A DNA stretch of 39,311 bases from the NCBI GenBank assembly GCA_009602725.1, contig WELB01000014.1:123857-163167 (forward strand), in the 5' to 3' direction. The notes below the pieces were generated by a model. That model was not told the DNA's origin, did not search any database, and worked only from the letters and a program-made list of their open reading frames with translations. The DNA comes from Spirogloea muscicola. Its lineage: Eukaryota > Streptophyta > Zygnematophyceae > Spirogloeales > Spirogloeaceae. Positions 1,620-38,399 of the stretch are shown piece after piece (the stretch's first letter is position 1; every line of letters begins with the position of its first letter). A program made the translations under genes and the position numbers.

Positions 1620-1960
1620 ATATTCCCTTCTCTGCGCGTAAACAGTAGATGAAAGCGAGCACTTCAGTGCAGACCCCTCCGAGTCTTGTCAAGGCTCTTT
1701 TGGGCTGGCCTTTTCCAGCTCAAGGCCTCAGGGATGAAGTTCCCATCTTTTCCACGGGGAGCAGACTGATGTTTAACGCCACAGGGCTCTCAGGCCCTGG
1801 TGTAATGTACACGGCATATCTATTCCTGCAGCATCGCCTGGCACATGCCTCGCTGCTTCGTGCTGGTCGTGCCCTGGCTGCCGCCTCAGGCTATAGTCGG
1901 GGCGACTTCATTTCCTGAAAATGCTTTCTCAGGCTTGCACCTGCTGATCAGGGATACTGA
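1620..1960 (+). repeat. Composite repeat: hairpin plus retroelement RLE 3' end
   Basis: 1620-1815 matches the reverse complement of about 2870-3075 and of 29500-29665, sharing CGAGCACTTCAGTGC, GGGATGAAGTTCC, a stretch ending GGGGAGCAG, and GGCCCTGGTGTA. It includes a hairpin copy at 1697-1720. From about 1770 it reads as the last part of an RLE-type retroelement protein (FNATGLSGPGV, then HRLAHASLLRAGRALAAASG). This aligns with the better preserved fragment at 7063-7795 (FNAAGSWAPV, MAHALHLRAGRALAAASG). It is a 5'-truncated remnant. Confidence 0.65.
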
Positions 1961-2529
1961 GCAGGAATCCATAGTGGTCTCTACGCTGTCCAGCTCCTGA
2001 TCTTGTTCACATTTTTTGTGGGCTAGCTTTTGACAGCCCTCGCCCGCTTTCAAGAACTGCTTCTTTCCGTTTTCTTGTTCTTCCCAAACTTGCAAGGGGA
2101 GAAGAGAATGAAGCAGCTCTTCGAAATGTAAGCACAAGCACGTGTTAGCCGCAGCAGGTATAGCCACCGTATGCAAGCCGCTCTGTGCACGTCGAATGCC
2201 GGCGCCACAGACAGGCAGGGTGATCCATTTTTTGCGCTCATTTCCGCTAGCAGCCTTGCCAACCGAGTAGCCTGCTTGTGTCGATGACTTGGTGGGATTG
2301 CGGAGTCAACAGAGTTGGTGACAGTACGTCCGCAACGATGCGGCAAACCTGTTCTCCTGCAGCACCTATCGATTGCCTTCGGCCTCGAAAGAAAAACCAA
2401 AAGCTGAAGTGGAAGCTGTATATAGCCAGCTCCGGATGAATGTACAAGGTCCAAAAGAAAGAGAGGGCGCATGGTGCACATGAGTAGAGGGAGGCCAGGT
2501 GTTCCGCATTGGGCTCTCCATGCCTCTGC
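1961..2529. other. Stretch without a supported gene
   Basis: No gene is supported here. On the minus strand a 169-codon open frame (2050-2559) and a shorter one (2247-2447) contain CRIVADVL, faintly like the IIADVV strand of the RLE domain, and DTSRLLGW. This may be a very old retroelement remnant, but the match is too weak to call. Confidence 0.25.
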
Positions 2530-2680
2530 TTTCAACGTACCCAGGCTCATGCAGTGCACTCGCTTGACGGCTGCGATCTGGCTGCTATCCCTGGGTTTCG
2601 TCGGGATGACTCTTTTCCCGCTGCAAGTTATTTGGAATTACGGCTACTGACTCGCAGTTACTGGGTCTCCAGCTGCAGTC
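2530..2680 (+). mobile_element. RLE retroelement C-terminal remnant
   Basis: The plus strand reads FQRTQAHAVHSLDGCDLAA, GFRRDDSFPAASYLELRLL and TRSYW. These align with LHLRAGRALAAASGFRQGG, FPAARLSELSLLTRSY at the end of the copy at 7063-7795. The expected 3' UTR words (TTAGCGCCTTTCGGCTC, TTGGACCTTGTC) follow to about 2735. It is 5'-truncated. Confidence 0.6.
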
Positions 2681-2772
2681 ACTTCCATACCTGTGTGGTC
2701 TTAGCGCCTTTCGGCTCTTTGGACCTTGTCTGTTCTTTCTGGAAGAAAGAAACAGGTTTTCCAAATATACTG

Positions 2773-3005
2773 GTGGCTGTGAGAGGCCAGCCCAAAGGGA
2801 TGGACAAGGTCTGGATGGCCGGATGGCGCAAAACGTATGTCTACATATCTAGGCAAAGCATGAAAATCTATTCGGATACACCAGGGCCTGATATACACCA
2901 GGGTCTGAGAGCCTGTGGCATCAAACATCTGCCTGCTCCCCGTGCCGAGATAGAAAAGAAAGGAACTTCATCCCTAAGTCCCTGAGCTGGAAAATGCCCG
3001 CTTAA
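2773..3005 (-). repeat. Hairpin repeat copies (minus orientation)
   Basis: A clear copy at 2773-2795 reads GGCTGTGAGAGGCCAGCCC on the plus strand, followed by AAAGGGATGGACAAGGTC, the reverse complement of the usual GACCTTGTCC leader. A degraded copy lies near 2984 (GAGCTGGAAAATGCCCGC). It forms part of the unit 2870-3560 that is repeated at 29500-30160. Confidence 0.65.
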
Positions 3006-3219
3006 ATTAGAACTGACAAGATTTCAGAGGGGTTTGCACTGAAGTGCTCGACTACTGTCTACCTGCGAAGAGTGGGGATAAGAGTCTCTTTCTTCCGGTC
3101 GCATGCATCAACATGTATCACCCGGAACGTGACATGTGCCCTTTAACCAGCCGCCCGGTCACAAGCCCATTTTCACAGTCAATGGCTTGCTGTAGTCACA
3201 GAGGTAAGCACATCGACGA

Positions 3220-3509
3220 TTGTGGGCCGTTGCAACATGGCGACCTATAACCCGTCAGTCGTTTACGGCAATCAATTTCACATTCCTATTTGTAGTCTGC
3301 TTCATCGCTCTCCTTCCACAATATGCGAGGATGCGAATATCAGTAAAGCTTGCAGCAATGTTCTTCTGGTACAGAGAAGACTGGCACTTGTCATGTGGTA
3401 TAGAAGCAGATAGCAAAGATTGCACGCTGGTCAGTGAGAGCATATAGATGGGCACGTGCTGGTCGCAAATCCGTAGCCCATGACAAGCAAAGCAAATGCT
3501 TGGACATTA
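3220..3509 (-). repeat. F-box/LRR 3' tail repeat, copy 2 (tail of paralogue B)
   Basis: Reverse-orientation copy of the tail at 1190-1490, directly downstream of the paralogue B stop codon. The block continues to about 2870 and matches 29500-30160 in the same orientation, including CAGCCGCCCGGTCACAAGCC against CAGCCGCCCCGTCACAAGCC. Confidence 0.7.
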
Positions 3510-5800: not shown

Positions 5801-6660
5801 ACCTGGCTTTCACAGTTAATATAGCGTGTCTGCCTGCCACGTAATATCTGACATGTCATGCATTTCTATCACTCGTCTGCCCTACCTACGGGTTCTTGGA
5901 GTCGCCGCCTTGTGGCATGACGGTGTGCGGCTGGGCCGGTGACGCGCTCCCATCTATGCAGCACTTAGCACATTGCTTTCTGCACCATCCAGCTCCTTCA
6001 GACCTTGTCCGTTCCTTTGGGCTGGCCTCTCACAGCCACCAGTCAATCTGGCCGCGCCTTCTTCTATGCAGCGGCTGGCCGGCCTCTCGGGCCCCTCTGG
6101 CCCCCAAAATTTCCTACATGGTCCTTGCTCGGTTAAATCTTTCAGCGCTTTTCGGCCCCTTTGGACCTTGTCATTACTTTTTGCCTGGCTGTTCACAGCC
6201 CTCGCCCAAAGGATATTCGTGCATTTGAAACAAACAAAGGGGGCGAGGGCTGTGAGGGCGAGGGCTCCTTCCCTTTTTTCAATCTGCTGTAGATCATGTA
6301 GTCTTCAGATGTGCTTGCCTTTGTAGTTGGCCATTTGGCCTTCGTTTGAATTCAAATACACGAGATTTCTCTTTCTTTTAAGACCTTGTAGATACCTTCG
6401 GGCTGGCCTTTCACACCGATTGCCGTAGACTGGAACAGCTGTCTCTTCTGGGAGAGTCTTTTTCCTTCCTTCTTTCGGGAAAGCCATTTTCCTTCTGGCC
6501 CCGCTTCCCGGAGCCCACCCGGCCCTGATCGGGCACTCCGCCAGCGATGCCCGCCGATTGCGCCGCCGCCGCAGCCGGCGGCTCGCGCTGGCGAGGCAGC
6601 ATTTGGAGCTTCTTGCAAGGGCACTCGGATAGGGCATCGCCGGGAGTAATCCGAGGGCTT
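5801..6660. repeat. Hairpin repeat cluster with a GC-rich dispersed repeat
   Basis: No gene is supported. Plus-strand hairpin copies occur near 6018-6037, 6182-6201 and 6397-6416. 6470-6620 (CGATGCCCGCCGATTGCGCC) is repeated at 9665-9830. Short pieces of the 3' end of the 23660-27482 element lie at 6208-6232 (minus orientation) and 6308-6362 (plus orientation; CCATTTGGCCTTCGTTTGAA), facing each other. Confidence 0.55.
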
Positions 6661-7062
6661 TGCGTCTGCCTTACCTACGTGTTTGGCAGTCAACGCCCCG
6701 TGGCTGCACGTGTGTGGGCCTGGGCCGGCTATGAGCTCCCACTTCCATGTAGCAGCTGGTTGGCCTGTGAGAAGAAAGACGCTTCCAGGACAGGGCGGTG
6801 GTTGGGAGAGGCCAGACCACGAAATGGAATAAACAAAGGTCGAAGGGGCCAGGTAAAAAGCTAGCTAGACAACAGCAACGGCGCTACCAACCTGAATGGT
6901 GGCTGTAAGAGGCCAGCCCAAAGGAGAAGAAGAAGAAGTGGCTATCCCAATGGGGGCAAGGGCTGTGAAAAGCCAGCCCGAAATCAATTGACAAAGGTTC
7001 GAAGGGGCCAAATGACGGAGGGGCCTAAAGCGCTATGGCAGAACGGGTGGAGGATGGACCAC
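6661..7062 (-). repeat. 3' UTR of the RLE element with three hairpin copies
   Basis: Minus-strand sequence downstream of the RLE reading frame at 7063-7795. After the stop come the words AGCGCTTTAGGCCCC, CCCCTTCGAACCTTTGTC and a hairpin (6958-6977), then a second near 6900 and a degraded third near 6800. This physical continuity shows that the hairpin belongs to the retroelement 3' UTR. Confidence 0.65.
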
Positions 7063-7848
7063 TCAGTAGCTACGAGTGAGGAGACTCAACTCCGACAGAC
7101 GAGCTGCCGGAAAACAACCTCCCTGGCGAAAGCCAGAGGCTGCAGCGAGAGCCCGGCCAGCACGCAGATGCAAGGCGTGTGCCATGGACCGCTGTAGGGA
7201 GACTGACAACCGCATGCGATAGACTGGGGCCCATGAGCCAGCAGCGTTGAAGTCAGCCGGTTCACCTCGCCTGCGGGACACAGCGCGCGCAAACTTGGCC
7301 AGCAGATCGAGCCACTGGGACCTAAGAGCCCCGTATACATCCACAGCCAGGGGTACGAACTCGTCCCCAGCCGGGTGATCAGCGTGTTTGGCCGCCTTGC
7401 AGCGAGCGGCTTTCGCCGCAGCGTGGCCAGCCCGCGAGGCAGAAAGCCCCGAATGAGAGTGGTCGACCACATCAGTGGTGACCACGTCAGCAATGATGCG
7501 CGCGCCGCCGCCCGGCGTGGACGCCACCAGGTCGACGCGGCGCGTGTTGAGTCCGGCGGCCCGATGGAGGATTGGCATGACAGAAGTGTTCTCCATCGCC
7601 ACCGTGTATTCGGCCGCCTGGAAGATGCCGAACATTGCATCGCGGAGGAGGTCGTGAGCAGCTGTACGTTCGCCTCCAATTGCGCAGCGGAGGACATGCG
7701 CCGCCAGCTCCGCCGGGCCCGCCGATCGCTCCCCGCATTCACACTGTAGCACGCCTAGCAGACAGGGCAGGGGGAGACCCAACAGGCGATGGGTTCCGTG
7801 CGGCAGCCCAAAGTAATGGACAAGGTCTGAAGGAGCCGGCTGGCGCAA
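7063..7848 (-). mobile_element. 5'-truncated non-LTR retroelement, CCHC plus restriction-like endonuclease
   Basis: A single open frame of 261 codons. The first about 22 residues derive from the preceding repeat, and retroelement homology starts at LLGLPLPCLLGVLQCECGE. A zinc motif C-x-C-x12-H-x3-C (residues 36-55) precedes an RLE-like core: RRVDLV (Asp about 106), RIIADVV (Asp about 121), then KAAKHADHP with FVPLAVDVYGAL. That order (Asp, Asp-Val-Val, Lys about 30 residues later) matches the PD-(D/E)XK endonuclease of R2-type elements. It ends LRAGRALAAASGF, LTRSY. Comparison with the element at 23660-27482 shows that the RT region is absent, a typical 5' truncation. The frame is intact here, so this copy may be relatively young. 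Confidence 0.7.
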
Positions 7849-8212: not shown

Positions 8213-8244
8213 CCTGGCCCTTACGAACTTTGTTCATTCTTCTT

Positions 8245-8700
8245 TTTTAGGCTGGCCTTTCCCAGCCCCTACCTTCTATTGGAGAGCACTTTCTTCAGAC
8301 CTTGTCATTTCTTTCCGTGCTGGCGCTTCGCAGCCCTCGCCCCCTGTGGGCCCTCCATTCAATGGCCGAGCCCTTCCATCTCTTAATACACACCCATTTT
8401 CCTTTGGGCGAGTGCTGTGAGGGCGATTGCTCCTTCCCTTTCCTTTCAGTCCTTGTGCAGTTCTTTGAGCCTTTGTCAATTGTTATTGTCCTTAGGGCTG
8501 TTTCCTTTGGGCTGGCCTCTCACAGGCCAGCCCAAACAATTAATCTACGGCCATTGCTGCAAATTGGAAGAGCTGTTTCCTTTGGGAGAGTCTTTCATTC
8601 TCCTGGGCTGGCCTCTCACAGCCACCACCCTCCTGGAAGAAGTGGCTCTCCCAACGGGGCAAGGGCTGTGAAAAGCCAGCCCGAAAGAAGTGACAAAGGT
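8245..8700. repeat. Dense hairpin repeat cluster with a 13-bp perfect palindrome
   Basis: Copies near 8246, 8313, 8506 and 8605 (plus) and 8665 (minus). At 8506-8536 the sequence is TTTGGGCTGGCCT, loop CTCAC, AGGCCAGCCCAAA, the longest perfect stem of the family that I found. No coding sequence is evident. Confidence 0.7.
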
Positions 8701-9310
8701 TCGAAGGGGCCAAATGACGGAGGGGCCTAGGTGCGCTAAGCAGCTACGAAGGGGCCTGAAGATGCTATGTCAGAACGGGGGAGGATGGACCACTCAGTAC
8801 TTACGAGTGAGGAGCCTCAAATCCGACAGACTAGCTGCCGGAAAAGTATCCTCCTGACGAAAGTCGGAGGCCGCAGCGAGAGCACGTCCAGCACGCAAAT
8901 GCAAGGCGTGGGCCATGGACGGCTGAAGGGAGACGGACTATCGCATACGATATACCTGAGCGCACGAGCCAGCGGCGTTGAAGTCAGCCGGCTCACCACG
9001 CCTGCGAGACAGCGCGCCGCGCAAGCCTGGCCAGCAGGTCGAGCCATGGGACCCGAGAGCCCCGTGCACGTCCACGGCCAGGGTTACGAACTCGTCGCCA
9101 GCCGGGTGGTCAGAGTGGTTGACCGCCTTGCCGCGAGCGGCCTTCGCCGCAGCAGGCCAGCCCGCGAGGCAGAGAGCCCCGGGTTGGAGCGGTCGACCAC
9201 ATCAGCAATGATGCGCGCGCCACCGACCGGCGTGGACGCCATTGAGGTCGACGCGGCGCGTTTGGAGTCCGTCGGCCCTCTAGAGGATTGGCATGACCGA
9301 AGCATTCTCC
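8701..9310 (-). mobile_element. RLE retroelement remnant with 3' UTR
   Basis: A minus-strand remnant aligned to the copy at 7063-7795. VMPIL is followed by a TAG (CTA at 9281-9283), then GPTDSKRAAST-like sequence, GARIIADV, and near 8830-9000 the carboxy end in shifted frames. The 3' UTR with a hairpin follows to about 8640. Internal deletions and frameshifts make it inactive. Its left part is duplicated at 21490-21620. Confidence 0.6.
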
Positions 9311-9495
9311 TGGAAGCTCTTTCTCTGCTCCATTGACAACAGGTTACTGAGAGCCCACTTGCTGACGTCTTGGAGATCCTGCTTTATGCGATTTCTTCAT
9401 GCCTTTCAGACTTGTCCATTCCTTTGGGCTGGCCTCTGACAGATAGCGCATTTGGCCCCTTCGTACTTTGGCCCATTCGAGCCTTGTTCTTTTCG
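9205..9495. repeat. Segmental duplication, copy 1 (partner 21490-21790)
   Basis: Near-identical to 21490-21790 in the same orientation, with shared CCGACCGGCGTGGACGCCAT, GGCCCTCTAGAGGATTGGC, ACAACAGGTTACTGAGAGCC and GGCCTCTGACAGATAGCGC. The partner has a short extra TTCTTTCAGACTTGAGCCC stretch. Both copies share the same internal TAG in the RLE frame. Confidence 0.8.
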
Positions 9496-10836
<1,341 letters not shown>

Positions 10837-16610: not shown

Positions 16611-17174
16611 CCGAAAGGGTTGTGCAGAATCAGCTCACTTGGGCGATACGCGCGCATCACGAGCCAGTGCCTCCTGGCACGCGCTGTACGAGGGTACCAC
16701 TCCAGGAGGCTGGCTCACACGTTGCGCCTTCTCTCGCTTCCTGGGCTGGCTTCTCACAGCCCTTGCCCCCAGTGGGAAGCCACTTTCTTTTCGGAGAAAG
16801 AGAGAGGCGCGCGGTGCGCATGAAGACGAAAAGGATGCCATTCCGAGCCTTACAAAAGTCCCGGTGACGGGGAAAGAAGCCACCAATTACCCTTTGGATT
16901 TGCGCATCGCAATGTATGGCAGCCGACACCATACGGCAGGACAGGGAGTACCAAGCAACCAGTGGCCACTGAAGCGGCTGTGTGCTACAGCGCATTCCTG
17001 GTTCCTTCGAATACTGTCCACTCTGGGCTGGCCAATCACAGCCATCGCCTGGAAGAGTCTCTCTTTCAAGGACGTACACGTCGGAGGGCGCGGGGTCGAG
17101 TCCGTCTGGCAGCAGACAGTAGTGCGGCTGCTGATATTTAGAGAGCGGCTGTGATAGCCAGCCAGATGCATGCA
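16611..17174. repeat. Hairpin copies and family-3 retroelement tail
   Basis: Plus-strand hairpin copies near 16742 and 17024. 16800-16875 (GGTGCGCATGAA, CCGAGCCTTACAAAAGTC) recurs at 30400-30500. 17140-17174 (GCGGCTGTGATAGCCAGCC) is the minus-strand tail of the RLE remnant at 17175-17860 and matches 29040-29065. Confidence 0.5.
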
Positions 17175-21489: not shown

Positions 21490-21790
21490 GCGCGCGCCAC
21501 CGACCGGCGTGGACGCCATTAAGGTCGACGCGGCGCGTGTGAAGTCCGTCGGCCCTCTAGAGGATTGGCATGACCGAAGCATTCTCCTGGAAGCGCTTTC
21601 TCTGCACCATTGACAACAGGTTACTGAGAGCCCACTTGCTGACGTCTTGATGATCCTGCTTTATGCAATCTCTTCATGCCTTTCTTCTTTCAGACTTGAG
21701 CCCTTCTTCTTTCAGACTTGTCCATTCCTTTGGGCTGGCCTCTGACAGATAGCGCATTTGTCCCCTTCGTACTTTGGCCCAATCGGGCCT
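21490..21790. repeat. Segmental duplication, copy 2 (partner 9205-9495)
   Basis: Includes a minus-strand RLE fragment ENASVMPIL, TAG, RADGLHTRRVDL with the same nonsense codon as the partner (CTA at 21556-21558), plus matching flank down to the degenerate hairpin near 21733. The left edge joins unrelated GC-rich sequence at about 21480. Confidence 0.8.
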
Positions 21791-23659
21791 GTGCGGATCC
21801 ACCGCGGGTTACCTGGCAAAAGCCTTTTTTTCTGTCGTTAATTGTCCCCGGACGTTGCACCTACGAAAGACGGGGCACTTCCAAAGGGGGCAAGGGCTGT
21901 GAAAAGTAAGCCCAGAAAGAGTGAACAAGATCCAAAGGGCAAAGCACATGACAAACCTAATATTCGAGGATCTGAAGCTTCGAGCATGGAGGCAACGCCT
22001 GTCATAAGACATCAGATCTCCTTGAGGCTGGCCGCTCCCAGCCAGCGGCTCCTGTCTACACTGTCTCGCCCTTGCTCCGGGTTGGTACTTCGGCGGCACA
22101 GATCAGTCTGGCAAATATGTTTGCTCGGTTTTGGATACGAAAGCCCCGTTTCAATCGTATTTGTCGAACTGTTACCTTTCCACCCCTCAGAGTTTCTTGT
22201 TCTTTTACAGAAATTGTACTGACTTGCTTTTGCCTCCCTCTCACTGCATGCGCACCGCGCGCCTTGCGCCTCCGGGTCGACACCCATCTGTAGGGGCGCT
22301 TCGCGTGGATGTGCTTAATGGCCGGACCCACAGCGGCTGAAGGTCTGAGCAGGTCAACCCAGAGTGCCGAAATCGTGCCCCGCCCAGCGGTCCACGGGGC
22401 GGGGCTCACTATCGAAGAAGTGGCTCTCCCACTAACGGCCTGCAGGCGGTCGATGATCGGCCGGTGGCGATTCTATTCTGAGGCGCCGGAAACAACAGAA
22501 AAGGTGAAGCAGCTCTTTCAAAGAGAGGCGATGGCTGTAAAGAGACAGCTTCTCCATGTGAGGACAGTAGCTTTGAGAGGCCAGCCCAAAGGCCTTCAAG
22601 AAGCCCACAAAAGAACAAAAGGATCCAAACGAAGTGGCAAATCCATGGGGAGTCGCAAAGCGAATACAACCCTGGGAGGCGACCATGTGTTGCCGGCTAG
22701 AGAATCGGCCCTAGGGGCGATATCACGAAGCTAAGGGTCGGTCAAGGAAGAACGAGAATGGCTCTCCAATTGGGGGCAAGGGCTGTGATAAGCCAGCACG
22801 GAAAGCTTGACGAGGTCATGAAGGTCAACAACGCCGCCCCAGCCCAGACAGCACTTACTTTAGCCGCCTGGACGTGGGGAAGGGCGAGCAGCCGCCTAGG
22901 TGCCCCATACTTTACTTCCACTTGGCTCGTCCAAGGCGCGGCCTCGACGGAAGCTGACCGCCGGGGCAATACCGTGCATGCACGGCCGTGTGCCGTTGAC
23001 CAGCCGTGACCGGGCGGGCCTGGCGGCTGCTGGGGCCCAAGGGGACAGTCGGCAGAGCATGAGGCTCGCAGCAGCAGCGCAGGCTGGGCCGCACTTCGGC
23101 CAATCAGGCCCTGCATCACTCAATACACACTCCACGCTGGGCCAGCAGTTTTAGAAGATGGAAGCGCTTCCCAAATTGGGCCGATGGCTGCGAAAAGGCC
23201 AGCTCAGAAAAGGAGGCCTCTGTAACAAACAGTTCGATGGCTTTTCGTGCCAGCCCGACATGAATGGACAAGGTAGCGGTGGCTGTGTCAGGCCAGCCCA
23301 CAAGAGAGTTATTCATGTTTGTCGGCCTGGCTTCTTGCAGCCATTGCCTTACATTGCCTTTACCAGCCCCTCTTCTCTATGGGCGAGCACTTTCTCTTTC
23401 TGACATTGAAGCTCTTCAATCCTTCCTTATCTTTCTTTCGTTCCACAGGGAAGTGGACGAGGAGAAAGGGGTTGCCCCAGCGTAGGCTGGCAACAACAAG
23501 TTCGGGCGGCGGAAGCAACGAGTTGGCTGGCGGCACTCTAGCCGCCGTAGCGCGGAGCGGGTGCATGTGGGACCTGGCGAAAAGGCCCGCTTAAAATGAA
23601 GCTGACAAGATCCAGAGGGGTTTGCAATGAAGTGCTCGACTACTGTCTACCTGCGAAGA
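21791..23659. repeat. Hairpin repeat field, no gene supported
   Basis: Minus copies near 21893, 22570, 22788, 23190 and 23280; a plus copy near 23323. 22060-22310 and 22800-23150 contain open frames without recognisable homology. 23580-23659 is a piece of the composite repeat also at 2990-3075 (CCAGAGGGGTTTGCAATGAA, GACTACTGTCTACCTGCGAA) and serves as the sequence into which the 3' end of the next element abuts. Confidence 0.5.
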
Positions 23660-23839: not shown

Positions 23840-24184
23840 CTAGAGCTCGCCCAGCTTTCTGGTGCAAAGAATTAGCCTGAGCACGCTGCAAACAGGCCAA
23901 ACTCGTCGTCGCAACAACGACAGAAAAGCAGCTGGCAAGCCCATCTCAGCCGGGAACACATCTGCATGTCGTGTGTAGCCTAGATTGGCTATGTTTTGAA
24001 GGAGAGTAAGGATACGAGGACCTAAGCAGCCAAAGATGTCGATTGCCGCTGGCAAGAGCTGATCACATCGGGGGTAATCGGAGTAGTGCTGCAACTTTCT
24101 TTGTTCAGCACTGCCCACTGCGTGGCCAGCGATGTGTGTCGATGCTGGACCTTTATAGGCCTCCGTAACCACGATATCGACCAA
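23840..24184 (-). pseudogene. Restriction-like endonuclease core of the retrotransposon
   Basis: MVDIVVTEAYKGPASTHIAG, HAVGSAEQRKLQHYSDYP and AIDIFGCLGP continue the RLE domain begun in the previous frame (RRTLDIV). Together they give Asp, Asp-Ile-Val, and Lys (QRKLQHYSDYP), matching KAAKHADHP in the copy at 7063-7795. It ends LILCTRKLGEL, then TAG at 23840-23842. 37640-38150 is a truncated sister of this segment. Confidence 0.7.
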
Positions 24185-26073
24185 AGCCCTTGGCCCTCCA
24201 CCAGGTTCACGCCCACAATGTCAAGTGTGCGGCGATGATGACGTCCCTGGGCATCCGTGGTGATAGGCATGATGTTGTTCACTTCCACCACCGCACGGTA
24301 CTCGGCGTCGCGCATCAAACCCGCCAAAGCATCACGGAGGAGGTTGTGGATGCCCACCATTTTTGGTCCAGTGGGGCATCGCAGCATGTGAGTGGCGAGC
24401 TCAGCACTCTCTGCACGGAAGCCGCACTCACACTGGCGCACCCCAATCAGGCAGTTAGGTGGGAGGCCGAGGAAGAGTTGAAGCAATGTCCGAAAGGCCT
24501 CGGAGCTGATGCTGAAGGCGCTGGCCACGGCGTGTGAGGTGATCCAGTCTGTGGCTCCAGGTGTGGCGAGGGAAGTAAGTCTTGCCAGGCTCCTTGGATT
24601 GTTGTGAATCTCTGGCAGCCTCCTCAAGCTTCTTTGGCGCTCATCTTCCACTGCCGTAACCAGTCTGGATTGTGCCCCTCTATCCGAAGCTTGGGCGAGG
24701 GCGGAGAATGGCGTGAGTAGGGGTCGTATAGAAGGGAAAGAGCCGATTGCCGAGTCACGGATGCTCCTCAGATCCGCTTGGAAGGGTAAGGAGCCTTCCT
24801 CCACGTTGCGTACGGGATCGTGGAGGCAAGGGAAGCGCATGGGAAGCATAGAGGCGATCTGGTGCCAGCAGCCCAGGAAGGCTGCTTGCGCCGTCTGCTC
24901 CAACGATCGGCAGCCAAGGCCGCCCATGCGAGTGGGGAGGGAAGCCTGGAGGGCAGATGAAGCGGAGGGGAAAGAGGAAGATTGTAGAAGGGATGCCAGG
25001 GACTGCAGCAGGGAGTTGTCGAATTCCTTGTAGAGCTCGCCCACCATGCCCATTGGGGCGACTGTCCGCTGCAGGTAGCATGCCCGTTGGCTGATGCAGC
25101 GGGTGAGAATGGCCAACGCCAGCTGTGTGTCCCCAACGAGGGGAAGTGAAGGGAGGGGGGCGAGATGTTTCTGGAGGCGTTCCCGCAAGTCCACCGCCAC
25201 GTGAGCTGGTGTGCCGAGGGGAACCTTGAGGATGGCCAGCCCATTGGCAGGGTTCTGGCAGCCGTGGGGGAGCTGAAGGTTGGCGGGGAGACCACGTGGG
25301 GACCATGCCACGCTCTTGGATGGGCAAACCCGCAGGCCCATCAGGTCCAGTTCGCGAACAAGCAATGGGTAAGCCGCCATGACTTCAGCTGGAGGTCCAA
25401 TGATGTGTGTATCATCGGCGTAGGAGGGGAAGAGGAGGTCTGGGTGTTGCCTCTGGGTGCGTCGTACTGCCCGACAATGTGCCAAGGCAAACAGGATTGG
25501 GCAAAGGGGACCCTCCTGGCGTGTTCCAAAAGATGACCACAGCGTCTTCCACGACTCTCCGGCTTGCCAAAGCAGCCGCCCTGGGCGGCCATAGGCCATG
25601 AGGAAAAAGGGTATAAGCGAAGGGAAGTGGATGCGCAGCTCCTCCATGATGACGCTGCGCTCCACTGTGTTGAAGGCATTACTGATATCCAGCCCAAGGA
25701 CCATCATTGAAGGGTCCACGTCGAGAGCAGCGCGGATGCCGTGAACGAGGGCCTCCGCCCCGCAGGACATGCCAGCACCAAATTGGTGGGGTGATAGGTG
25801 GCTGGTCAGCTGGGGTTTCAGCTCGCTGCACACGGCCTTTGATACCAGCCGCATGATTCCCTCCGTCATCACAATGGGTCTCACCCCGCCTGTCGGCTTC
25901 GCAAGGGCCAGCAGGTGGCTGGAATTTAAGGCGTCGGCAATGCGTGGTGGAATGGCAGCCCTGGCGATGTGCCGGCAGGTGGACAGGAACAGGGAGAAGC
26001 TCCTCTCATCCCCATCAAGGAAAAGGTCCTGTCGGTACTCAAAGAGCCATCCAGAAGGGCCTCCAGACACCAT
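24022..26073 (-). pseudogene. Reverse transcriptase and CCHC segment of the retrotransposon
   Basis: 683-codon frame. RT landmarks: SGGPSGW (about 3-9), LLALAKPTGGVRPIVMTEGI (54-73), LDISNAFNTV (128-137, catalytic Asp in LDIS), TRQEGPLCPILFAL (184-197) and SYADDTHII (217-225) with the catalytic YADD box. The usual QGDPL box reads QEGPL. A zinc motif C-x-C-x11-H-x3-C follows at residues 548-566 (QCECGF to HMLRC), then RRTLDIVGVNL, the start of the RLE domain. A frameshift near 24180 moves the RLE core to another frame, and the remaining residues of this frame are out of register. Confidence 0.85.
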
Positions 26074-28525: not shown

Positions 28526-29039
28526 GATCCCTCGTCAGGCACGCTCCTTGCGGGGCGGGCCTTGGGGCGGACCCCATGCATCCGCTGACAAGAGAATGCT
28601 GAGCAGTAATCTGCAAGCTTTCCAGCTCCGTTGGACCTTGTCTACTTCTTCAGGGCTGGCCTTTCACAGCCGTAGCCCTCTTCCCGAGAAAAGCTCACAG
28701 TCGTTTGAAAGCAGGCTTTCCACAGCCCTCGCTCCTTTTGGAGCTGTGCTTACATATGGAAGATCTGCTCCAACCTCTTATCTCACAAGGCAAGGATGAA
28801 TGTTAAACAGAAAGCAGCTCTTGAGAGGTGGCGAGGGGCTGGAGAAAGCTAGCAAACATCATTGACCCGGGTCGGAAGGATACGTAAAGCTTAGAGAGCA
28901 CTTGCTCGGTGATCCTAGTCAGCAGCCGCAAGTCTGAAAGATCAGTATCAAGAAAGAAAGAGCATCTCCAATGTAAGGCAACAGGTGTGAGAGGCCAGCC
29001 CAAGGGAATTTACAGAAAAGAAAGAATGCGGCTGCTGAT
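28526..29039. repeat. Hairpin copies and retroelement 3' end
   Basis: Plus hairpins near 28652 and 28710, a minus copy near 28985. The minus strand at 28880-28960 reads FFLDTDLSDLRLLTRITEQV, the familiar retroelement carboxy end (SDLRLL). No host gene. Confidence 0.5.
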
Positions 29040-29480
29040 GTCAAAGACGCGGCTGTATAAGCCAGCCAGATGCAAACATCAGGTGTTCATGACGGAGCCA
29101 CAGGCTAGGCAGACAGGGCGCTCTGAAGTACCCCCGTGTCAGCAGTGGGAAGTCAGATGAGCTGAGGGGAGGAAGAGCAACCCCGCTGCGCAAGCCAGAG
29201 GCTGCTGCAAGGGCGGCGCGACCGGCTCGGCAATGCAAAGCAAGCGCTTGGGGCCGCTGTAGGAAGATAGATAGCCGCATGCATAGCAGGACACAAGATC
29301 CAAAGGCACCCAGCCTCAAGAAGTGCTGCACCCTGTTCGCGGCGCTGCTGGTCAGCTTAAGAGGCCAGCAGCGAAAGCAACGAGGACAAGCGACCCAAAG
29401 AAAAGGGAAGGAGTCGCTCCGCCTGTAGCCTGAGGCGGCAGCCAGGCCACGACCAGCACGAAGATGCGAGGCATGTGTCA
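29040..29480 (-). mobile_element. RLE retroelement remnant, third lineage, with nested second tail
   Basis: The minus strand from 29331 reads MQHFLRLGAFGSCVLLCMRL, LALHCRAGRAALAAASG and LPPLSSSDFPLLTRGYF. Upstream (29357-29480) a second carboxy end reads SHLRAGRGLAAASGYRRSD. The 3' tail (29045-29065) contains GCGGCTGTATAAGCCAGCC, a variant hairpin, and matches 17145-17300. Confidence 0.6.
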
Positions 29481-29499: not shown

Positions 29500-30160
29500 C
29501 GTTACACCAGGGCCTGAGAGTCTGCGGCGTCAAAGAGCTGGTTGCTCCCTGTGCCGAAATGGAAAAGAAGAACTCCCAGAAGGGGTGAACGCTTGTGAAA
29601 GGCCAGCCCCAAAGAATACGGACAAAATCCGAAGAGGCTTGCTGGGAGGTGCTCGCTATCAAGGACTTGCTCAAGGACACTTTCACGAAGAGGGGGATGA
29701 TTTGCCTCTTGCCTCTGGTCACATTCTACGACATGTATTGCTCGTCGAGTGACTTGTGCCCATTAACCAGCCGCCCCGTCACAAGCCGTTGAGGACAGTC
29801 AACCACGTATCGAAGTTACAGAAATGACCATATCTACGACTGTGGGCCGTTGCAGCAATGCCGACCATAAACCCGTCATTCTATATGGCCATCAATTTTG
29901 CATACTCCTATTTGTATTCTACTTCATCTCTCTCCATCAAATGATGTGGGGATGCAGATGTCAGTGAAGCTTGCTGCACAGTATCTTTCTGGTCCAGAGA
30001 TTACGGAGACACTTGGGCATGTGGTATATGAGCAGATAGCAAGGAAACATATTGGTCAAAGAGACCATATGCCTGGGCACGTGCTGGTCACAAATGCGTA
30101 CTTCAAGACAAGCAAAGCAGTATCTGACATCATAACCAGTGGCAGCCATCACGGAGAAAT
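29500..30160 (-). repeat. Composite repeat matching 2870-3560 (orphan F-box/LRR tail)
   Basis: Same order and orientation as 2870-3560: GGCCTGAGAGTCTGCGGC, a hairpin variant near 29597, CAGCCGCCCCGTCACAAGCC, GGGCCGTTGCAGCAATGCC, CATACTCCTATTTGTATTC, GCACGTGCTGGTCACAAATG. The F-box/LRR gene that should follow at 30160 is absent, and hairpin repeats follow instead. Confidence 0.7.
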
Positions 30161-31180
30161 CTCCGTCATTTGGCCCCTTCGAACCTTTGTCAATTCTTTT
30201 CGGGCTGGCTTTTCACAGCCCTTGCCCCCATTGGAAGTGCCACTTCTTCTTTCGTCATTGGGCGAGCCCTTTCTTCTTGCCCTTTCTGCCTAGCCAGTGG
30301 CTCCGCTAATAAGGTCATGAACACCCTAAGTATGCGCCTGGCTGGCTTTTACAGCCGCACTTTTAATATCAGCAGCCGCACTCTTCCTCTTTGGGGCAAG
30401 GCGCGCCGTGCACATGAATTGAAAGAGAGAAGGGCTCTCCCATTGAGGATAGGGGCAAATGAAACGGAGGCCAATCCGAGCCTTACAAGTCCTGGTAACG
30501 GGGGCAAGGGGTTAACTTGCGGCTACTAAGTGATGTTTTTGAAGTGACTATCCTACATGCGCCTTGCTTGCTTGTGTCTTTCAGCGCTTTCTTTCCGGCC
30601 CTTTCGGACCTTGTCAGTGTTTCGGACTGGCCATTAACAGCCCTCGCCACCTTCTTAGGGTTACGGTTTAGAATCTAGGGTGAGGGTTCAAGGTGGCTGG
30701 CATTTCCCAGCCACCTTCTTCAACTGGGCGAGAGCTTATTCTTTTGAAGAGCTGCTTCTCCTCGGCATCAGGGGACACGGCCCCCGCAGAACCCAATATA
30801 CTAGGCACAAGGGCTTGTCGATTACCGTCCTGTATTCGATATCCCCTTTTCGGACCTCCATGTGCTGCCTCGTGGTTACTGAGCAGGTCAGCTTAGCAGC
30901 ACGTGATATGTACATCTGTCCCTGCGTCGGAGAGCCACTTCTCCTGCTTGCCTTCGTACTTGCCCACTCTGGCCCTCCATCACTGATAACCCACTCCAAA
31001 TGCCAGTGTACCCCGCCAACTGAGACCTCCGCTCTTCCTTGTTCACTCCTTCTCACCCATGTCGTCATTCTCTCAAAGCTATTGCCTTGCACTGGACGAG
31101 CTACTTCTTCCTTATTTTTGGGCTGGCCTCTCACAGCCATCGCCTGTGACGATCCCAGGTCTGTGAGCGCCAAATAGCAC
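30161..31180. repeat. Hairpin repeat field with telomere-like stretch
   Basis: Plus copies near 30205, 30335, 30630, 30692 and 31122. The copy near 30335 (GGCTGGCTTTTACAGCCGC) is the third-lineage tail. 30654-30692 (CTTAGGGTTACGGTTTAG, then GGGTGAGGGTTCAAGG) resembles degraded telomere repeats. No gene. Confidence 0.5.
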
Positions 31181-32055
31181 TGTTGACGCTCACATAATGT
31201 TCAGATAGTGTACTTGCCGGCTTTTCAGGCTCTGATATTGAGAAGTCGTTGGGGCCCCACTGCAGAATCTCCACAGTAATGTTGCGCTAACGTATAATCT
31301 AATGCGTCCATGTGGTACTGTGGCGCGGGCCGTTTTGTGTGCCTTCCCGCGCCAAGGGCCGTCATCCTTGTCATGCTGACTCATCCGCATCTCGCCTGGG
31401 TCAGCGTCAGCTTAAGAAAATAATCCACGCTGATTCGATTGTGCCTTGTCATCTCTTGATCGTCCACAACCAATATACGAACCCATAGTCTGTGAGCGCC
31501 AGCCAACGTTCTAAAGGTGACGTGATTGGATTTACTTGCTGGCAAATCTCACCAACTTGCACGGATCATGAGGCCGTCAGCCTCACGTACAGACGTCCCT
31601 TTGCTGTTACAGCACTCATGCCTTTATCGTCCCTTATCATCCTACCGGGAAAGCCTTAGGAAAGCGCTGTTCGGCCCCTTCGGACCTTGTCAGTTTTCCG
31701 GGCTGGCTGTTGAAACGGATGCGGGTCTAACGACTGGGGGTTAGGCAGCCGGAGCCAAGGCAACGCTAATGCAGATGGAGATTGGATTGAGGCGTCTGCC
31801 GAGACTGTCTGCTACAGAGAAGGGAGCCCTCTATATAGAAGTAGAAGTGCTTGCCTATTGAGATAGGGGCTGGGAGAAGCCAGCCCATAAAAGAATGAAC
31901 AAAGGACGAGAAGGGGCCAGGGGAAGCACTAAGAAAGACAAGCACAAGAAGAAACTAAGCAGTCACGAAGCACCCACTAAACCCCTGCTAAGCAGCCTTA
32001 GGTCAGAGAAGGCCCGGGCCTTCATATAGGAGGCCCGGGCCCGGGCTAAAGAATT
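31181..32055. repeat. Gene-free stretch ending in a retroelement 3' end and CCCGGG palindromes
   Basis: 31181-31690 holds no gene that I can see; TCTGTGAGCGCCA occurs at about 31156 and 31488. From 31880 to 32010, minus orientation, lies a retroelement 3' UTR and the protein end FSDLRLLSRG. AAGGCCCGGGCCTT (32009-32022) and GCCCGGGCCCGGGC (32033-32046) are perfect palindromes. Confidence 0.45.
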
Positions 32056-32060
32056 GAGAT

Positions 32061-32550
32061 GTGGACCATCCACGGGAGGACGATTTCTTCCCGCTCGCCA
32101 TCGACACGCACGGTGCGATGGGAGCTCGGTGGCTCGAGCTGCTCAACCAGCTCTCGCACCACGCCATCTCACGCCGCTTCCAAGGGGAGCGGGTGGATTC
32201 CCATGCAGCCGGATGTCATGCGCAGGTGTATTGCATGCGCTTGGCCGTCGAAGAAAGGGCTCGCCCATTGAGGATATGGGCTGGAAAAGCCAGCCCAAAA
32301 AGAATGAAGAAAGTACGAGAAGGGGGGCCAGGGGAAGCGCTAAGAAAACAAGCACAAAATGAGAGAAAGCAGCTACGAATCACTCGGTAACCCCTGCAAA
32401 GCGTCTCGCTGCAGCGGTTCATGGCTCGCGCGTTGCATCTCCGCGCTGGTCGAGCCCTTGCTGCCGCCTCTGGCCCTAGCCAGGGGACCCGCTACCAGGA
32501 GCCCAGTTTCTATGACCTGCGGCTGCTTAGCAGGGGTTACTGAGTGTTTC
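32061..32550 (+). mobile_element. RLE retroelement remnant interrupted by another retroelement 3' end
   Basis: The plus strand 32061-32255 reads VDHPREDDFFPLAIDTHGAM and ARWLELLNQLSHHAISRR to YCMRLAVEER, the RLE end of a relative of 7063-7795. About 32256-32400 is a minus-orientation 3' UTR unit with a hairpin near 32278. Then 32405-32541 resumes QRFMARALHLRAGRALAAAS, YDLRLLSRGY and stop, followed by the 3' UTR and a hairpin near 32627. Confidence 0.7.
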
Positions 32551-32699
32551 GTAGCTGCTTAGTTCCTTCTGTGCTACATTTTTTTTAGCGCTTCCCCCAG
32601 CCCCTTCAAACCTTGTTAATTCTTTTTGGGCTGGCCGTTCCCAGCCCCTGTCCTCCAGCCCCTATCCTCTCTGGAAATGCTCTCTGGGCGAGCACTTCC

Positions 32700-33200
32700 T
32701 TCCTTGGTGAAGCGGGTAAGCAACCCGCTAGCCCAAAAGCTATATGCCCACAACAGGGCATGGATTAAGCCCGCAGGCCCACCATATGTTTAGGGGGCTG
32801 TCGGCTGGACTGACGCGTTACACCTATGGTTATGTTATGGCTTCTTAAGCTGACTCTTACCGCCGGGCGTGCCCGCTACAAGAGGGAAGGTCCCTGACGC
32901 GGTGCCCGCCGCCAGGTGAGAGCGGAGCCCTCGCCCGGCGGTGGCCGTGGCGGTGCCACCGCCTGATCAGGTGCCGAATGGGTTTTGCCTCGCGGTAGCA
33001 GTGGTGTCCAGATGCTGACACGTGCCATCTGTGTCAGCCAAGCCCAAGCATTGTCTCTACGATAAAACTGTTTAGCTCAAGAGATTCTACGATCTCCACC
33101 ATATTTCTACCGACGTGACGTGTCCGTCACACTGATCCCCACATTTGGGAGAGTAATTTCACTTATATCGTCCTTGACTGACCTGGCTTTGCCAGGTGGC
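32700..33200. other. Array of perfect short hairpins, possible structured RNA
   Basis: Perfect inverted repeats: 32711-32729 (AGCGGGT/ACCCGCT), 32744-32761 (ATGCCC/GGGCAT), 32883-32895 (AGGGA/TCCCT), 32949-32963 (GGCGGT/ACCGCC), 33014-33038 (GCTGACAC/GTGTCAGC), 33115-33130 (GTGACG/CGTCAC), 33181-33197 (ACCTGGC/GCCAGGT). There is no long frame and no retroelement homology. I cannot match it to a known RNA family from sequence alone. Confidence 0.4.
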
Positions 33201-33249
33201 CCTCAGTAAATTCGCACAGGGGCCCAGGTGGCTTCTCAGTAGGTACATA

Positions 33250-33839
33250 CATGGGACCAGGGGTCCACTGTGGGCCCTGGCACACCTGCGTTGGTTCGCA
33301 CCTGGTCCTCGGTCGCTCGCGTGGCCCTGACGGGAGCTGTGGCGACAGAAGCTCTGTCCTTATTTTGTCGGCAGCGCAACGCTTCTCCTCCTATCACCTT
33401 CGTGCGACCCGCCCCTCGCGGGGTGGGCCTTGGGGCTACCCCCGCACACTGTGGAGGGAGGGTGGCATGGAGGTGCACTGCAAAGGATAGAGCCGTAAGT
33501 GAAGACCTGGAAGAACGCGCAGCCCTGCCTGGCTGCCGCTCGCCTCGTTGCCGGTCTAGTATGGAGCTCTTCCGATGGGGCCCTCTGCTCCAAGACGTCA
33601 GGCCGAGTACAAAGGCCAGCTCATCGACATCGGGGGCGAAGGCTGTAAACAGCCAGCCCGAGGAGGATTTGACAGGGTCCGAAGGGGTGAAAAGCGCTTG
33701 AAGACACTGTTACGCAAGGTCCATGTAGGCAGCCGCAAAGCAGCCCCCTTGCCTTCGTACTGAGTACACACCTCAATACTGGCCAAGGAGTCTCGAGCTG
33801 CACCTCCCCGCCACAGCCGCCGCCTTCGCCGCCGCTGCC
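33250..33839 (+). promoter_or_regulatory. Conserved upstream region of paralogue C
   Basis: 33255-33480 matches the upstream region of paralogue B in reverse orientation, including a hairpin at 33408-33427. C then carries about 280 nt without a counterpart in B, including a minus hairpin copy near 33643 and CCGAAGGGGTGAAAAGCGC. Homology resumes near 33730 (AGCAGCCCCCTTGC, then ACACACCTCAATAC) up to the start codon. Confidence 0.45.
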
Positions 33840-35867: not shown

Positions 35868-35869
35868 AG

Positions 35870-36289: not shown

Positions 36290-36740
36290 CAAATCCGTGT
36301 ACTTGAAACAAACGAAGGTCAAAATGGCCAAGTACATGGGCAAACACATCTAATGACGTATATCACCCACTGCAAATTGACCCGCTCAGTAGCCACGGGT
36401 CAATTCATGAAGGACGCTATAAAAGAAAGTTTGTGCGCGCCCCTAGAGAAGGGGCTGGAAAATGCCAGCTCAACAAGAATGGACAAGGTCCAAAGAGCTG
36501 AAAGGTGCCGAAAAGAACGACTACACAGCTAGACACGAGACGACGCAGATGGTAGCTTGCTGCTGATGGTAGCTTAGTACTCACGAGCGAGCAGCAGCAA
36601 GTCCGAGTAACTCGCAGCTGGGAAAGAGGCAGTCCGCCTAGCTAATCGATGCCTTGATACCAGACGGCAGCTTGGAAGCCCTTCTGCCACCAACTAGAGC
36701 TCGCCCAGCTTTCTGGTTCAAAGCATGAAGCTGAAACTAG
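36290..36740 (-). mobile_element. 3' end of the 23660-27482 family, split by a second retroelement tail
   Basis: 36290-36425 matches the 3' UTR terminus of the large element (GTACTTGAAACAAACGAAGG and TTGACCCGCTCAGTAGCC). About 36430-36638 is a minus-orientation hairpin-type tail: the carboxy end in decayed form near 36560-36638 and a hairpin near 36452. 36640-36740 resumes the first element (AATCGATGCCTTGATACC, then GAGCTCGCCCAGCTTTCTGG). Confidence 0.65.
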
Positions 36741-37120
36741 AGGGGGGGTGGCTCTGAAGGAAAACGCTCGGTAGTTGTACGATCGGCGCGGCGGGGAGAA
36801 GGGGTGACGGCCCGCGAAAGCAGGTGGCGCCTCATTTTTAAGTGCCACCCGAAAGTAACACATTTCAGCACCGAAGGGCGGCGGCAGCTGTTTTCTTCGA
36901 GGTTACTAGGTCCAATCTTTTTTTTGGGCTGGCTTCCCACAGCCACTGCTGTCAATCTGGAAGCGCTCTTTCTATAAGGTGATTCAACCTACCGGGCAAG
37001 CTTTTTTGGAGAAAAGAAGAGCTTTTGGAGAAAGCGCTCTTGGCCATTTCGGACCTGTTTCCAGCTGTCTGTTCGTAGCCCTTGCCCCTCTTGGGAGAGC
37101 CACTGTTCCTTGATGGCACA
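36741..37120. other. Unassigned sequence with one hairpin copy
   Basis: No gene is supported. A plus hairpin copy lies at about 36928 (TTTGGGCTGGCTTCCCACAG), with a degraded one near 37065. 36780-36850 is GC-rich with no homology that I can name. Confidence 0.35.
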
Positions 37121-37335
37121 GAAATCTCTGGACCAGTAAGATATCGCTGCAAGCTTTACTGACATCTGCATCCACACATCATTGAAGGAGAGCGATGAAG
37201 CAGAAAGCAAATAGGAGTACAAGAAATCGACGGCCTAAGGAATGACGGGTTTAGGGTCGGCCTTGCTGCAACGGCGAAGTGAAATGAACAGCCGGATAAC
37301 ATCACGAAGTGAAATGAGCAGCCGGATAAAGATGA
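37121..37335 (+). repeat. F-box/LRR tail repeat, copy 5 (orphan), plus 30-bp tandem duplication
   Basis: AATCTCTGGACCAGTAAGAT to GGCCTTGCTGCAACGGC is a copy of the paralogue C tail without a gene. At 37275-37330 a 30-bp unit (GAAGTGAAATGA, then CAGCCGGATAA) is present twice in tandem, directly at the point where the tail homology stops. Confidence 0.65.
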
Positions 37336-37564
37336 GAAGCTATTCGAGATTAAGTCCATAGCTGTCAAAGGCCAGCCCGAGAAGTATCGCTGAACTAGGT
37401 CCACAAGGGCCGGAAACTGTAGAAAATGTAAATCCTTTTCGAAACTTTGGACGCTTTCAGTACCTCCAGATAACAAACGCAGATCGGACAAGACGGAGCA
37501 ATGCCGGTTAGCAGTCGCCCTTTTGATTGAGAAGACGAAGTAGCTATACTGAGGAGGGAAAAGC
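37336..37564. repeat. Hairpin copy and retroelement carboxy end
   Basis: A minus hairpin near 37365 (AAAGGCCAGCCCG). The minus strand 37450-37500 reads VLSDLRLLSGGTE. This is a short 5'-truncated retroelement tail. Confidence 0.5.
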
Positions 37565-38150
37565 TTTCGCGGACTTGGAACAATTGAAGGCCAAAGTGGC
37601 TAAGTACAAAGGCACGTACATCTGATGACGTGCATGACCCACTGCAAATTGACCCGCTCAATACTCACGGGTCAACACATAAAGGTCGCGAATCGATGCC
37701 TGAATACCAGATGGCAAATGACAAACCCTTCTGCCACAAAGTAGAGCTCGCCCAGCTTTCTGGTGCAAAGCATGAGCTTGAGCACGCTGCAAACAGGCCG
37801 ACACTCGACTGTGCAAGAACGACCAAAAAGCAGCTGGTGCCTATCTCAGCCGGAAGCACATCTGCACGTTGTGCATAACCTAGATTGCCTATACCCTGAA
37901 GGAGAGTATGAAATCGAGGACCTAAACAGCCAAAATATCGACTGCAGCTGGCAGGAGCTAATAGCAGTGGGGGTAGTCGAAGTAATGCTGCAGCTTACTT
38001 TGCTCTGCACTCCTCACTGCGTGGCCAGCAATTTGGATCGATGCTGGACCTTTCAAAGCCTCCGTAACAAAAACATCAACCAAGCTCCGTAGTCCACCAG
38101 GTTGCAAGCCCAGGGTGCGGCGATGACGACGTCCCCACTTCTGGCTGAAG
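37565..38150 (-). mobile_element. 5'-truncated copy of the 23660-27482 retrotransposon
   Basis: Matches 23660-24260 along its whole length in the same orientation. The minus strand includes VDVFVTEALKGPASIQIAGH, AVRSAEQSKLQHYFDYPHC and the 3' UTR ending near CCAAGTCCGCG. The 5' truncation falls at about 38150, inside the RLE domain. The frame differs from that of the large element, so both are decayed independently. Confidence 0.75.
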
Positions 38151-38399
38151 GGCCACCCCACTAAACGATACGGTCCAGTGGAGACAAACGTGGATAGCCT
38201 TTGGGAAAGGAAGAAGCTCCTCCAGAGGGGCCGAGGGCTTTGAAAGACCAGCCCACAGAAGAGTGGACAAGGTCTAAAGGAGCTGGAAAACGTAGAGATT
38301 ACTGAGGGTGCCTGCTTGGTAAGTTCTGCGAATGGCGGCTCAATAATCTCCTTCCAACAAACAAGGAATCACTAAGGATGGCCGCTCATCTAGCCCGAC
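38151..38399. other. Short unassigned stretch with a hairpin copy
   Basis: A minus hairpin variant near 38230 (GGGCTTTGAAAGACCAGCCC), followed by GAGTGGACAAGGTC, the reversed leader. Nothing else is recognised. Confidence 0.4.

What the first reader, a model, noticed from the sequence alone, without database searches (positions are those of the whole stretch)
1697..38250. About 50 copies of a GGGCTGGC...ACAGCC hairpin throughout the window
The core GGGCTGGC-(TTTTC/CTCTC)-ACAGCCC recurs in both orientations, roughly 28 plus and 22 minus by hand count. It usually has the leader CCTTCGAACCTTGTC-ATTCTTT and the trailer TTGCCCCCATTGGGAGAGCC. It is absent from the protease exons and rare in 27.5-28.6 kb. 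In several places (6870-7062, 8640-8790, 32550-32650) it follows directly on the stop codon of an RLE retroelement frame. It is therefore best explained as the conserved 3' UTR structure of these elements, copied either as extreme 5' truncations or as non-autonomous (SINE-like) partners.
Basis: partly seen in the sequence, partly recalled or inferred. Interest (0 to 1): 0.7.

Follow-up and report, generated by a model that had tools for sequence, protein, structure and literature searches.

The report
Hairpin ending of an algal retrotransposon
The hairpin repeated about 50 times here is the conserved tail end of a group of R2-like jumping genes in a green-lineage alga, left behind as short fragments when copying broke off early; it is a well-populated new example of a known arrangement.

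Summary
A profile finds 49 copies in the window (28 plus, 21 minus) and none in reversed or shuffled controls; the genome holds 27,289 exact cores against 9 for the reversed control. The hairpin lies in the 3' UTR of a lineage of R2-like non-LTR retrotransposons with an RLE-type C-terminus. It follows the end of the frame, mostly by 67-103 nt, in 49 of 50 loci fetched through their protein. About 25 nt after it, homology ends abruptly at CCACTTCT without poly(A) in 29 of 30 loci (by eye).

The short copies are 5' truncations, not SINEs: breakpoints are spread at about one per nt from 5 to 100 nt, with no shared 5' end. Target duplications are in excess, and copies tend to insert just behind another copy's pyrimidine tail in the same orientation. 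A second RLE lineage in the same genome and window ends without the hairpin (0 of 6).

RNA-level selection is inferred from a stem that hardly varies between families with diverged loops and flanks; there is no excess of compensatory changes, so recognition by the reverse transcriptase is likely but not shown. New member of a known kind.

The parts
7063..7848 (-). RLE-type C-terminal frame of a family A LINE (261 aa, 5'-truncated)
6928..7020 (-). 3' end of that LINE: leader, hairpin (6961-6979), trailer, CCACTTCTTC end
8797..9123 (-). RLE C-terminus of a second family A copy
8628..8722 (-). its 3' end with hairpin 8664-8682
32064..32540 (+). RLE C-terminus, best match the family C protein
32600..32716 (+). 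its 3' end with hairpin 32628-32646
29128..29280 (-). RLE C-terminus fragment
28949..29014 (-). hairpin copy 127 nt downstream of it
38433..38507 (-). RLE fragment ending 15 residues short of the query end
38198..38292 (-). 3' end with hairpin 38236-38254
24022..26073 (-). RT frame of lineage H, the RLE LINE group WITHOUT the hairpin
1674..1721 (+). hairpin copy
2010..2051 (+). hairpin copy
2739..2832 (-). hairpin copy
5987..6072 (+). family D copy, possible TSD TCTATGCAGC
6137..6208 (+). hairpin copy
6378..6415 (+). hairpin copy
6766..6850 (-). hairpin copy
6871..6926 (-). hairpin copy directly behind the tail of the family A copy
7804..7841 (-). hairpin-profile match overlapping the 5' end of the truncated RLE frame
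8215..8296 (+). hairpin copy (C-like by eye)
8293..8385 (+). hairpin copy
8502..8583 (+). hairpin copy
8594..8638 (+). hairpin copy
9401..9442 (+). hairpin copy
9450..9549 (+). hairpin copy (A-like by eye)
9587..9669 (+). family D copy
16719..16801 (+). hairpin copy (A-like by eye)
17000..17068 (+). hairpin copy
17941..18032 (+). hairpin copy, family A1c
18058..18140 (+). hairpin copy (B-like by eye)
21710..21748 (+). hairpin copy
21860..21939 (-). hairpin copy
22498..22541 (-). hairpin copy
22540..22592 (-). hairpin copy
22748..22823 (-). hairpin copy
23147..23213 (-). hairpin copy
23276..23309 (-). hairpin copy
23322..23354 (+). hairpin copy
23356..23412 (+). hairpin copy, family B
28620..28685 (+). 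hairpin copy
29543..29638 (-). hairpin copy
30156..30252 (+). family A1 copy
30419..30456 (-). hairpin copy
30594..30648 (+). hairpin copy
30695..30751 (+). hairpin copy
31108..31144 (+). hairpin copy
31662..31712 (+). hairpin copy
31827..31918 (-). hairpin copy
32244..32323 (-). family C copy, antisense, inside the 32.06-32.54 kb RLE stretch
33628..33696 (-). hairpin copy
36414..36505 (-). hairpin copy
36910..36975 (+). hairpin copy
37045..37122 (+). hairpin copy
37361..37415 (-). hairpin copy

Best explanation
The hairpin is the conserved 3'-terminal RNA element of one lineage of R2-like, RLE-type non-LTR retrotransposons (families A1, A1c, A2, B, C and variants, D, and older ones). The longest frame seen (L101) runs, stop to stop, through proline-rich repeats, a zinc-finger motif, RT, a CCHC motif and an RLE-type end (..DLxLLTRGY* and variants); after about 67-103 nt comes the hairpin, then about 25 nt and a pyrimidine end such as CCACTTCT(TC)n. 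Shown: position, precise 3' end, association with the frame, spread 5' breakpoints, excess target duplications, same-strand insertion behind other copies' tails. Inferred: the reverse transcriptase binds the hairpin to choose its template and starts target-primed reverse transcription at a nick in a pyrimidine-rich target; synthesis usually stops early and leaves tens of thousands of fragments (medians of about 125-220 nt by family, worked out by hand).
For: Sense hairpin within 200 nt of the frame end in 30 of 30 family A loci (the best 30 of 149 matches, one of them the window's own copy, several near-identical) and in 19 of 20 hand-picked further loci at 64-78% identity, all fetched by protein and not by hairpin; 0 of 50 have an antisense one by a narrower pattern. 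Copies share the 3' end and then diverge. 1,558-codon frame in L101 with the hairpin 91 nt after it; RVT_1 E 1.8e-17; best PDB matches are R2 retrotransposon proteins, E 1.4e-5. 5' breaks of 145 unbaited copies: 14 at 0-4 nt, 17 at 5-20, 18 at 21-40, 21 at 41-60, 42 at 61-100, 33 beyond. TSD score >=9 in 22 of 115 against 6.8 by re-pairing. 8 of 117 copies begin within 15 nt behind a same-strand tail, 1.25 expected, 0 near an opposite one. Mean identity over 15 pairs of six family references: stem arms 1.00 and 0.94, loop 0.75, flanks 0.72 and 0.65.
Against: No inner-stem pair is changed on both sides in 16 representatives, and the covariation score of inner plus outer stem is 0.107 against 0.120 shuffled; in 176 distinct copies there are 9 compensatory pairs against 7.55 expected. 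Three of five family 3' ends fold no better than shuffles. The RLE assignment rests on motif reading and gene order; the AlphaFold model is unusable (mean pLDDT 41.5) and no PDB match covers that part. Many TSDs are short and pyrimidine-rich, and two of the top three scores are repeats of neighbouring copies rather than TSDs, so single cases are uncertain.
Confidence: 0.9

Rival explanations
1. The short copies are SINEs: transcribed from their own promoter, with a fixed 5' end, borrowing the LINE 3' tail.
For: Very many short copies with an intact LINE tail; SINE/LINE pairs sharing a tail are well known in other organisms (passages of PMC3747384).
Against: Breakpoints are spread along the 3' UTR and continuous from the hairpin to beyond the 1,200-nt limit in families A and B, to 778 nt in C and 367 nt in D. 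The one apparent peak (75-80 nt in family A1) is largely a variant whose flank is still element sequence: 6 of 7 copies at 80 nt, by eye. No tRNA gene in the window and no Rfam match in the window or in three loci.
Confidence: 0.04
2. The inverted repeat is conserved as DNA, not RNA: a binding site for the element's own protein or the transcription terminator of the LINE.
For: The stem hardly varies rather than covarying, as a sequence-read site would; it lies close to the 3' end.
Against: A pyrimidine-rich loop and spacing kept in register with the 3' end fit an RNA tail; precedent in stringent-type LINEs (passages of PMC4176376).
Confidence: 0.2
3. No function: the hairpin is common only because the last nucleotides of any LINE are the most copied.
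For: Truncation alone explains why the 3' end outnumbers the rest.
Against: It does not explain why the stem is nearly identical in source families whose RLE proteins are about 64% identical and whose flanks diverge; recent shared ancestry explains only part of this.
Confidence: 0.15

Closest known systems
Stringent-type LINE 3' tails (eel UnaL2, zebrafish ZfL2-1 and ZfL2-2)
   Same: A stem-loop close to the 3' end that is not poly(A); [quoted passage not shown]
   Different: Those are L2-clade LINEs with an APE-type endonuclease (endonuclease type recalled); here the element is R2-like with an RLE-type end. Binding has not been tested here. There the loop is the part read specifically; here the loop is what varies.
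R2 retrotransposons
   Same: Zinc-finger motif, RT and C-terminal RLE region in one frame; best PDB match. The R2 protein is also known to use its own 3' UTR RNA in target-primed reverse transcription (recalled; of PMC10499050 I saw only the search listing).
   Different: R2 inserts into 28S rDNA (abstracts in the listing); these copies are dispersed, with a preference for pyrimidine tracts and their own tails.
HERO and other RLE elements that target microsatellites; Utopia (passages of PMC4640811)
   Same: RLE-type elements, some with a simple-sequence target; tandem insertion reported for one Utopia family.
   Different: Clade not determined here; no strict target found.
Chlamydomonas SINEX/RandI pairs (table passages of PMC3747384)
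   Same: Green-lineage LINE tails also present on many short elements; one SINEX ends in (CTTT)n.
   Different: Those short elements are SINEs; here they are truncations.

Membership tests
R2-like RLE-type non-LTR retrotransposon | Reverse transcriptase domain | tested here: met
   RVT_1 E 1.8e-17 in L101 and 1.3e-12 in the window frame of lineage H
R2-like RLE-type non-LTR retrotransposon | N-terminal zinc finger in the same frame | tested here: inconclusive
   CxxC..H motif at about residue 523-545 of L101 seen by eye; zf-met scores 16.7, below its cut-off of 21.2; alignment to the R2 finger not significant (-2.6 and 2.1 bits)
R2-like RLE-type non-LTR retrotransposon | C-terminal CCHC motif and PD-(D/E)XK-type endonuclease | tested here: inconclusive
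   C36, C38, H51, C55, R104 and D106 invariant in 20 rows, D121 in at least 90% (motif names recalled); structure model unusable
R2-like RLE-type non-LTR retrotransposon | Marks of target-primed reverse transcription: 5' truncation, precise 3' end, target duplications | tested here: met
   duplications shown only as an excess
R2 clade proper | Insertion in 28S rDNA | tested here: not met
   Copies on many contigs with unrelated flanks; whether some also lie in rDNA was not looked for
Stringent-type LINE | 3' stem-loop at a similar place near the end in source elements | tested here: met
   49 of 50 loci
Stringent-type LINE | Reverse transcriptase needs the stem-loop | not testable with these tools
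   needs a biochemical or cell assay
SINE | Shared sharp 5' end / fixed length | tested here: not met
SINE | Pol III promoter from tRNA, 5S or 7SL RNA | tested here: inconclusive
   No tRNA gene and no Rfam match in the window; diverged or internal A/B boxes were not scanned

The most novel reading that the evidence does not exclude
One hairpin serves as a common recognition tag for the reverse transcriptases of several diverged RLE families, so they can copy each other's transcripts; with the pyrimidine tail also acting as the target, insertions seed further insertions and build clusters, such as this window, out of tail fragments.
Probability: 0.25. Interest if true: 0.55.

Novelty: new member of a known kind. 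Interest (0 to 1): 0.36.

Why it matters
It gives a large natural data set (27,289 exact cores in one 153-Mb genome) for an R2-like element with a conserved 3'-tail hairpin, beside a second lineage in the same genome that lacks it. That contrast makes tail recognition by R2-like reverse transcriptases, and its sharing between families, testable. For annotation, it shows that these short repeats need not be an independent SINE family.

Tried and rejected
SINE reading: rejected. Stalling of the reverse transcriptase at the hairpin: an apparent pile-up of breakpoints in the loop was not borne out when copies at the bait positions were left out and matching was improved (17 breaks in 16 nt, the rate seen elsewhere), so it is not claimed. 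Outer stem pairing leader with trailer (TTGTYCATT with AATGGGCGA): cognate flanks pair better than nearly all shuffles in B, C, E, F and I types (fractions 0-0.037), but not in A1 (0.22), A1c, A2, D, G, J or K (0.10-0.71); cognate flanks pair only slightly better than those of other groups (-8.6 against -7.8 kcal/mol); pairing in register is 80.9% of cells against 33-54% when slid, yet no better than shuffles among sequences (81.6%), and only one pair shows a change on both sides. Left open. Structure prediction of the RLE part: useless. Profile search of PDB with alignment A1: nothing. Rfam: no match. The per-pair tally printed was misregistered and is replaced. Paper searches returned no paper. 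None of the titles listed in searches is about these elements; the searches cover only the held open-licence library.
Full report
OBSERVATION. The core GGGCTGGC-N5-ACAGCC with up to 3 mismatches occurs 70 times in the window against 10.2 in shuffles. A profile HMM from 242 seeds, some of them from the window, gives 49 copies at E<0.01 in the window, 28 plus and 21 minus, and none in reversed or dinucleotide-shuffled sequence. Genome-wide, GGGCTGGC-N3..6-CAGCC has 13,729 forward and 13,560 reverse exact matches against 6 and 3 for the reversed control. In the 252 kb I then held (window and 63 loci), 383 profile copies at E<0.01 accompany 206 exact cores; scaled up this makes about 41,000-51,000 copies in the genome depending on the cut-off, and the window's own ratio (49 to 20) would give about 67,000. 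The sample is biased towards hairpin and RLE loci, so these are rough.

WHAT IT BELONGS TO. The RLE-type frame at 7063-7848 (-) has 149 matches from 146 scored candidates in the genome, many open; eight share one score. The best 30 of these (one is the window's own copy; several are near-identical, so they are not independent) came as loci, and I fetched 20 more, picked by hand from those at 64-78% identity. I checked what follows the C-terminal motif (DLxLLTRGY and variants) within 200 nt. The sense hairpin is there in 30 of 30 and 19 of 20 (L091 lacks it); measured distances are 48-117 nt, mostly 67-103; an antisense one, by a narrower pattern, in 0 of 50. In 4 of the 50 the motif was not found and a default end was used, which accounts for some of the spread. 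In 29 of the 30 A-type loci the copies share sequence up to CCACTTCT and then diverge at once (by eye; L019 departs earlier); the others behave alike. This is the 3' end of the element; there is no poly(A), and the next three positions after CCACTTCT are 93-98% pyrimidine.

FAMILIES. Six 3'-end types were used as references: A1, A1c, A2, B, C, D. B, C and D ends are preceded by the same kind of frame end (read by eye). One long copy (L101) has an open frame of 1,558 codons, stop to stop, with proline-rich repeats, a zinc-finger motif, RT, CCHC motif and RLE-type end, and the hairpin 91 nt after it. Pfam gives RVT_1; the zinc finger stays below the Pfam cut-off. The best solved structures by sequence are R2 retrotransposon proteins, E 1.4e-5 and 2.8e-5, aligned over the RT; the finger alignment is not significant. 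The RLE label rests on motifs and position; the fold prediction failed.

CONTRAST INSIDE THE GENOME. The RT frame at 24022-26073 belongs to another lineage (H; 43% identical to the A type in the aligned part). Nine of its 71 matches have one and the same score and an open frame of 1,267 codons, a sign of recent activity. Its 3' UTR is different and ends near ..ACACGCATTT (by eye); none of 6 fetched loci has the hairpin within 200 nt. The hairpin is therefore a property of one lineage, not of all RLE elements here.

TRUNCATION, NOT SINE. For 145 unbaited copies with a recognised tail (of 211 tails found, 147 unbaited, 2 too near a locus end), the 5' break lies 0-4 nt upstream of the tail in 14, 5-20 nt (the hairpin) in 17, 21-40 in 18, 41-60 in 21, 61-100 in 42 and beyond 100 in 33: about one per nt from 5 to 100. 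The 61-100 bin is somewhat inflated by places where a copy departs from my reference but is still element sequence, such as the seeming peak at 75-80 nt in A1. Pairwise comparison, which does not depend on a reference, gives a continuous spread in families A (77 copies), B (34), C (43) and D (23).

INSERTION. Direct repeats between the 5' and 3' flank score 9 or more in 22 of 115 copies against 6.8 when flanks are re-paired; 10 or more in 13 against 4.2. A clear one is CTTCCAGGAGCCAAGT in L065; two of the three highest scores are neighbouring copies, not duplications. Eight of 117 truncated copies begin within 15 nt behind another copy's tail on the same strand, 1.25 expected at random positions in the same loci, and none near an opposite-strand tail in the same total span; within 40 nt it is 12 against 3.2. 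The tail, itself a pyrimidine tract, thus seems to be a favoured target; template jumping during one insertion could give the same arrangement and is not excluded.

STRUCTURE. Over 15 pairs of the six family references the two stem arms are 100% and 94% identical on average, the loop 75%, the 30 nt upstream 72% and the 26 nt downstream 65%. Among 16 representatives, some of them single copies, four of six inner pairs never vary and the other two only lose pairing; none is changed on both sides. RNAalifold keeps the inner stem only, with no supporting double change. Within 176 distinct copies, compensatory changes number 9 against 7.55 expected by independence, which is what neutral decay of dead copies predicts. 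An outer stem is possible in some families and unproven. Of five family ends folded alone, B and C fold better than shuffles (z -3.5 and -2.9), A1, A2 and D do not.

MECHANISM. Shown: place in the element, precise 3' end, spread 5' ends, target duplications in excess. Inferred from stringent-type LINEs, where the protein binds the 3' stem-loop and deletion of it abolishes movement (passages of PMC4176376): the hairpin marks the RNA for the reverse transcriptase. I put this step at about 0.6.

ORGANISM. It has many light-harvesting genes, and one LHCII fragment is closest to green-lineage LHC chains. That the top chains include mosses and seed plants is my recall of those PDB entries; a streptophyte alga is likely, and a zygnematophyte is only a guess from apparent gene triplets and genome size.

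Noticed in passing
24022-26073 (-); genome copies such as G000:C153, C298, C89: A second RLE-type LINE lineage with nine equally scoring copies having an open frame of 1,267 codons, hence probably recently active, with a different 3' UTR that contains short inverted repeats (ACATT..AATGT, GGCC..GGCC; by eye).
   Followed up: partly
L101:228-4901 (-); compare window 26229-27482 (-): Upstream of the zinc-finger motif the frame is a tandem array of proline-rich repeats (SPPPSPPPPPPSTPPDVAAAAC..); the lineage H frame in the window also has a proline-rich stretch there.
   Followed up: no
about 11.8-14.5 kb, plus strand: Exons of an aspartyl-protease-like gene (..FADFSLGDPAQPQILFVDTGSDLLWTQ..), followed by a proline-rich stretch with a masked part; identified by eye only.
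   Followed up: no
10469-10836: A (TC)n tract of about 185 units.
   Followed up: no
1-5.2 kb, 33.9-35.9 kb, 38.7-39.3 kb: Repeated genes or fragments in both orientations (inverted repeats I1-I12) that read like leucine-rich-repeat proteins by eye; Pfam gave no match for the 339-aa frame at 3510-4529.
   Followed up: no
L014 and L043 (5' flanks), also L044, L057: Another dispersed repeat (..GCGCCCCGCGCGCCTTCTCTC) whose pyrimidine end seems to have served as target of hairpin copies (possible TSDs CTTCTCTCTTTCT and CTTCTCTCTTT).
   Followed up: no
L023, L011: Open frames that begin inside another copy's hairpin tail and run into the RLE frame: tail-to-head copies kept in frame.
   Followed up: no
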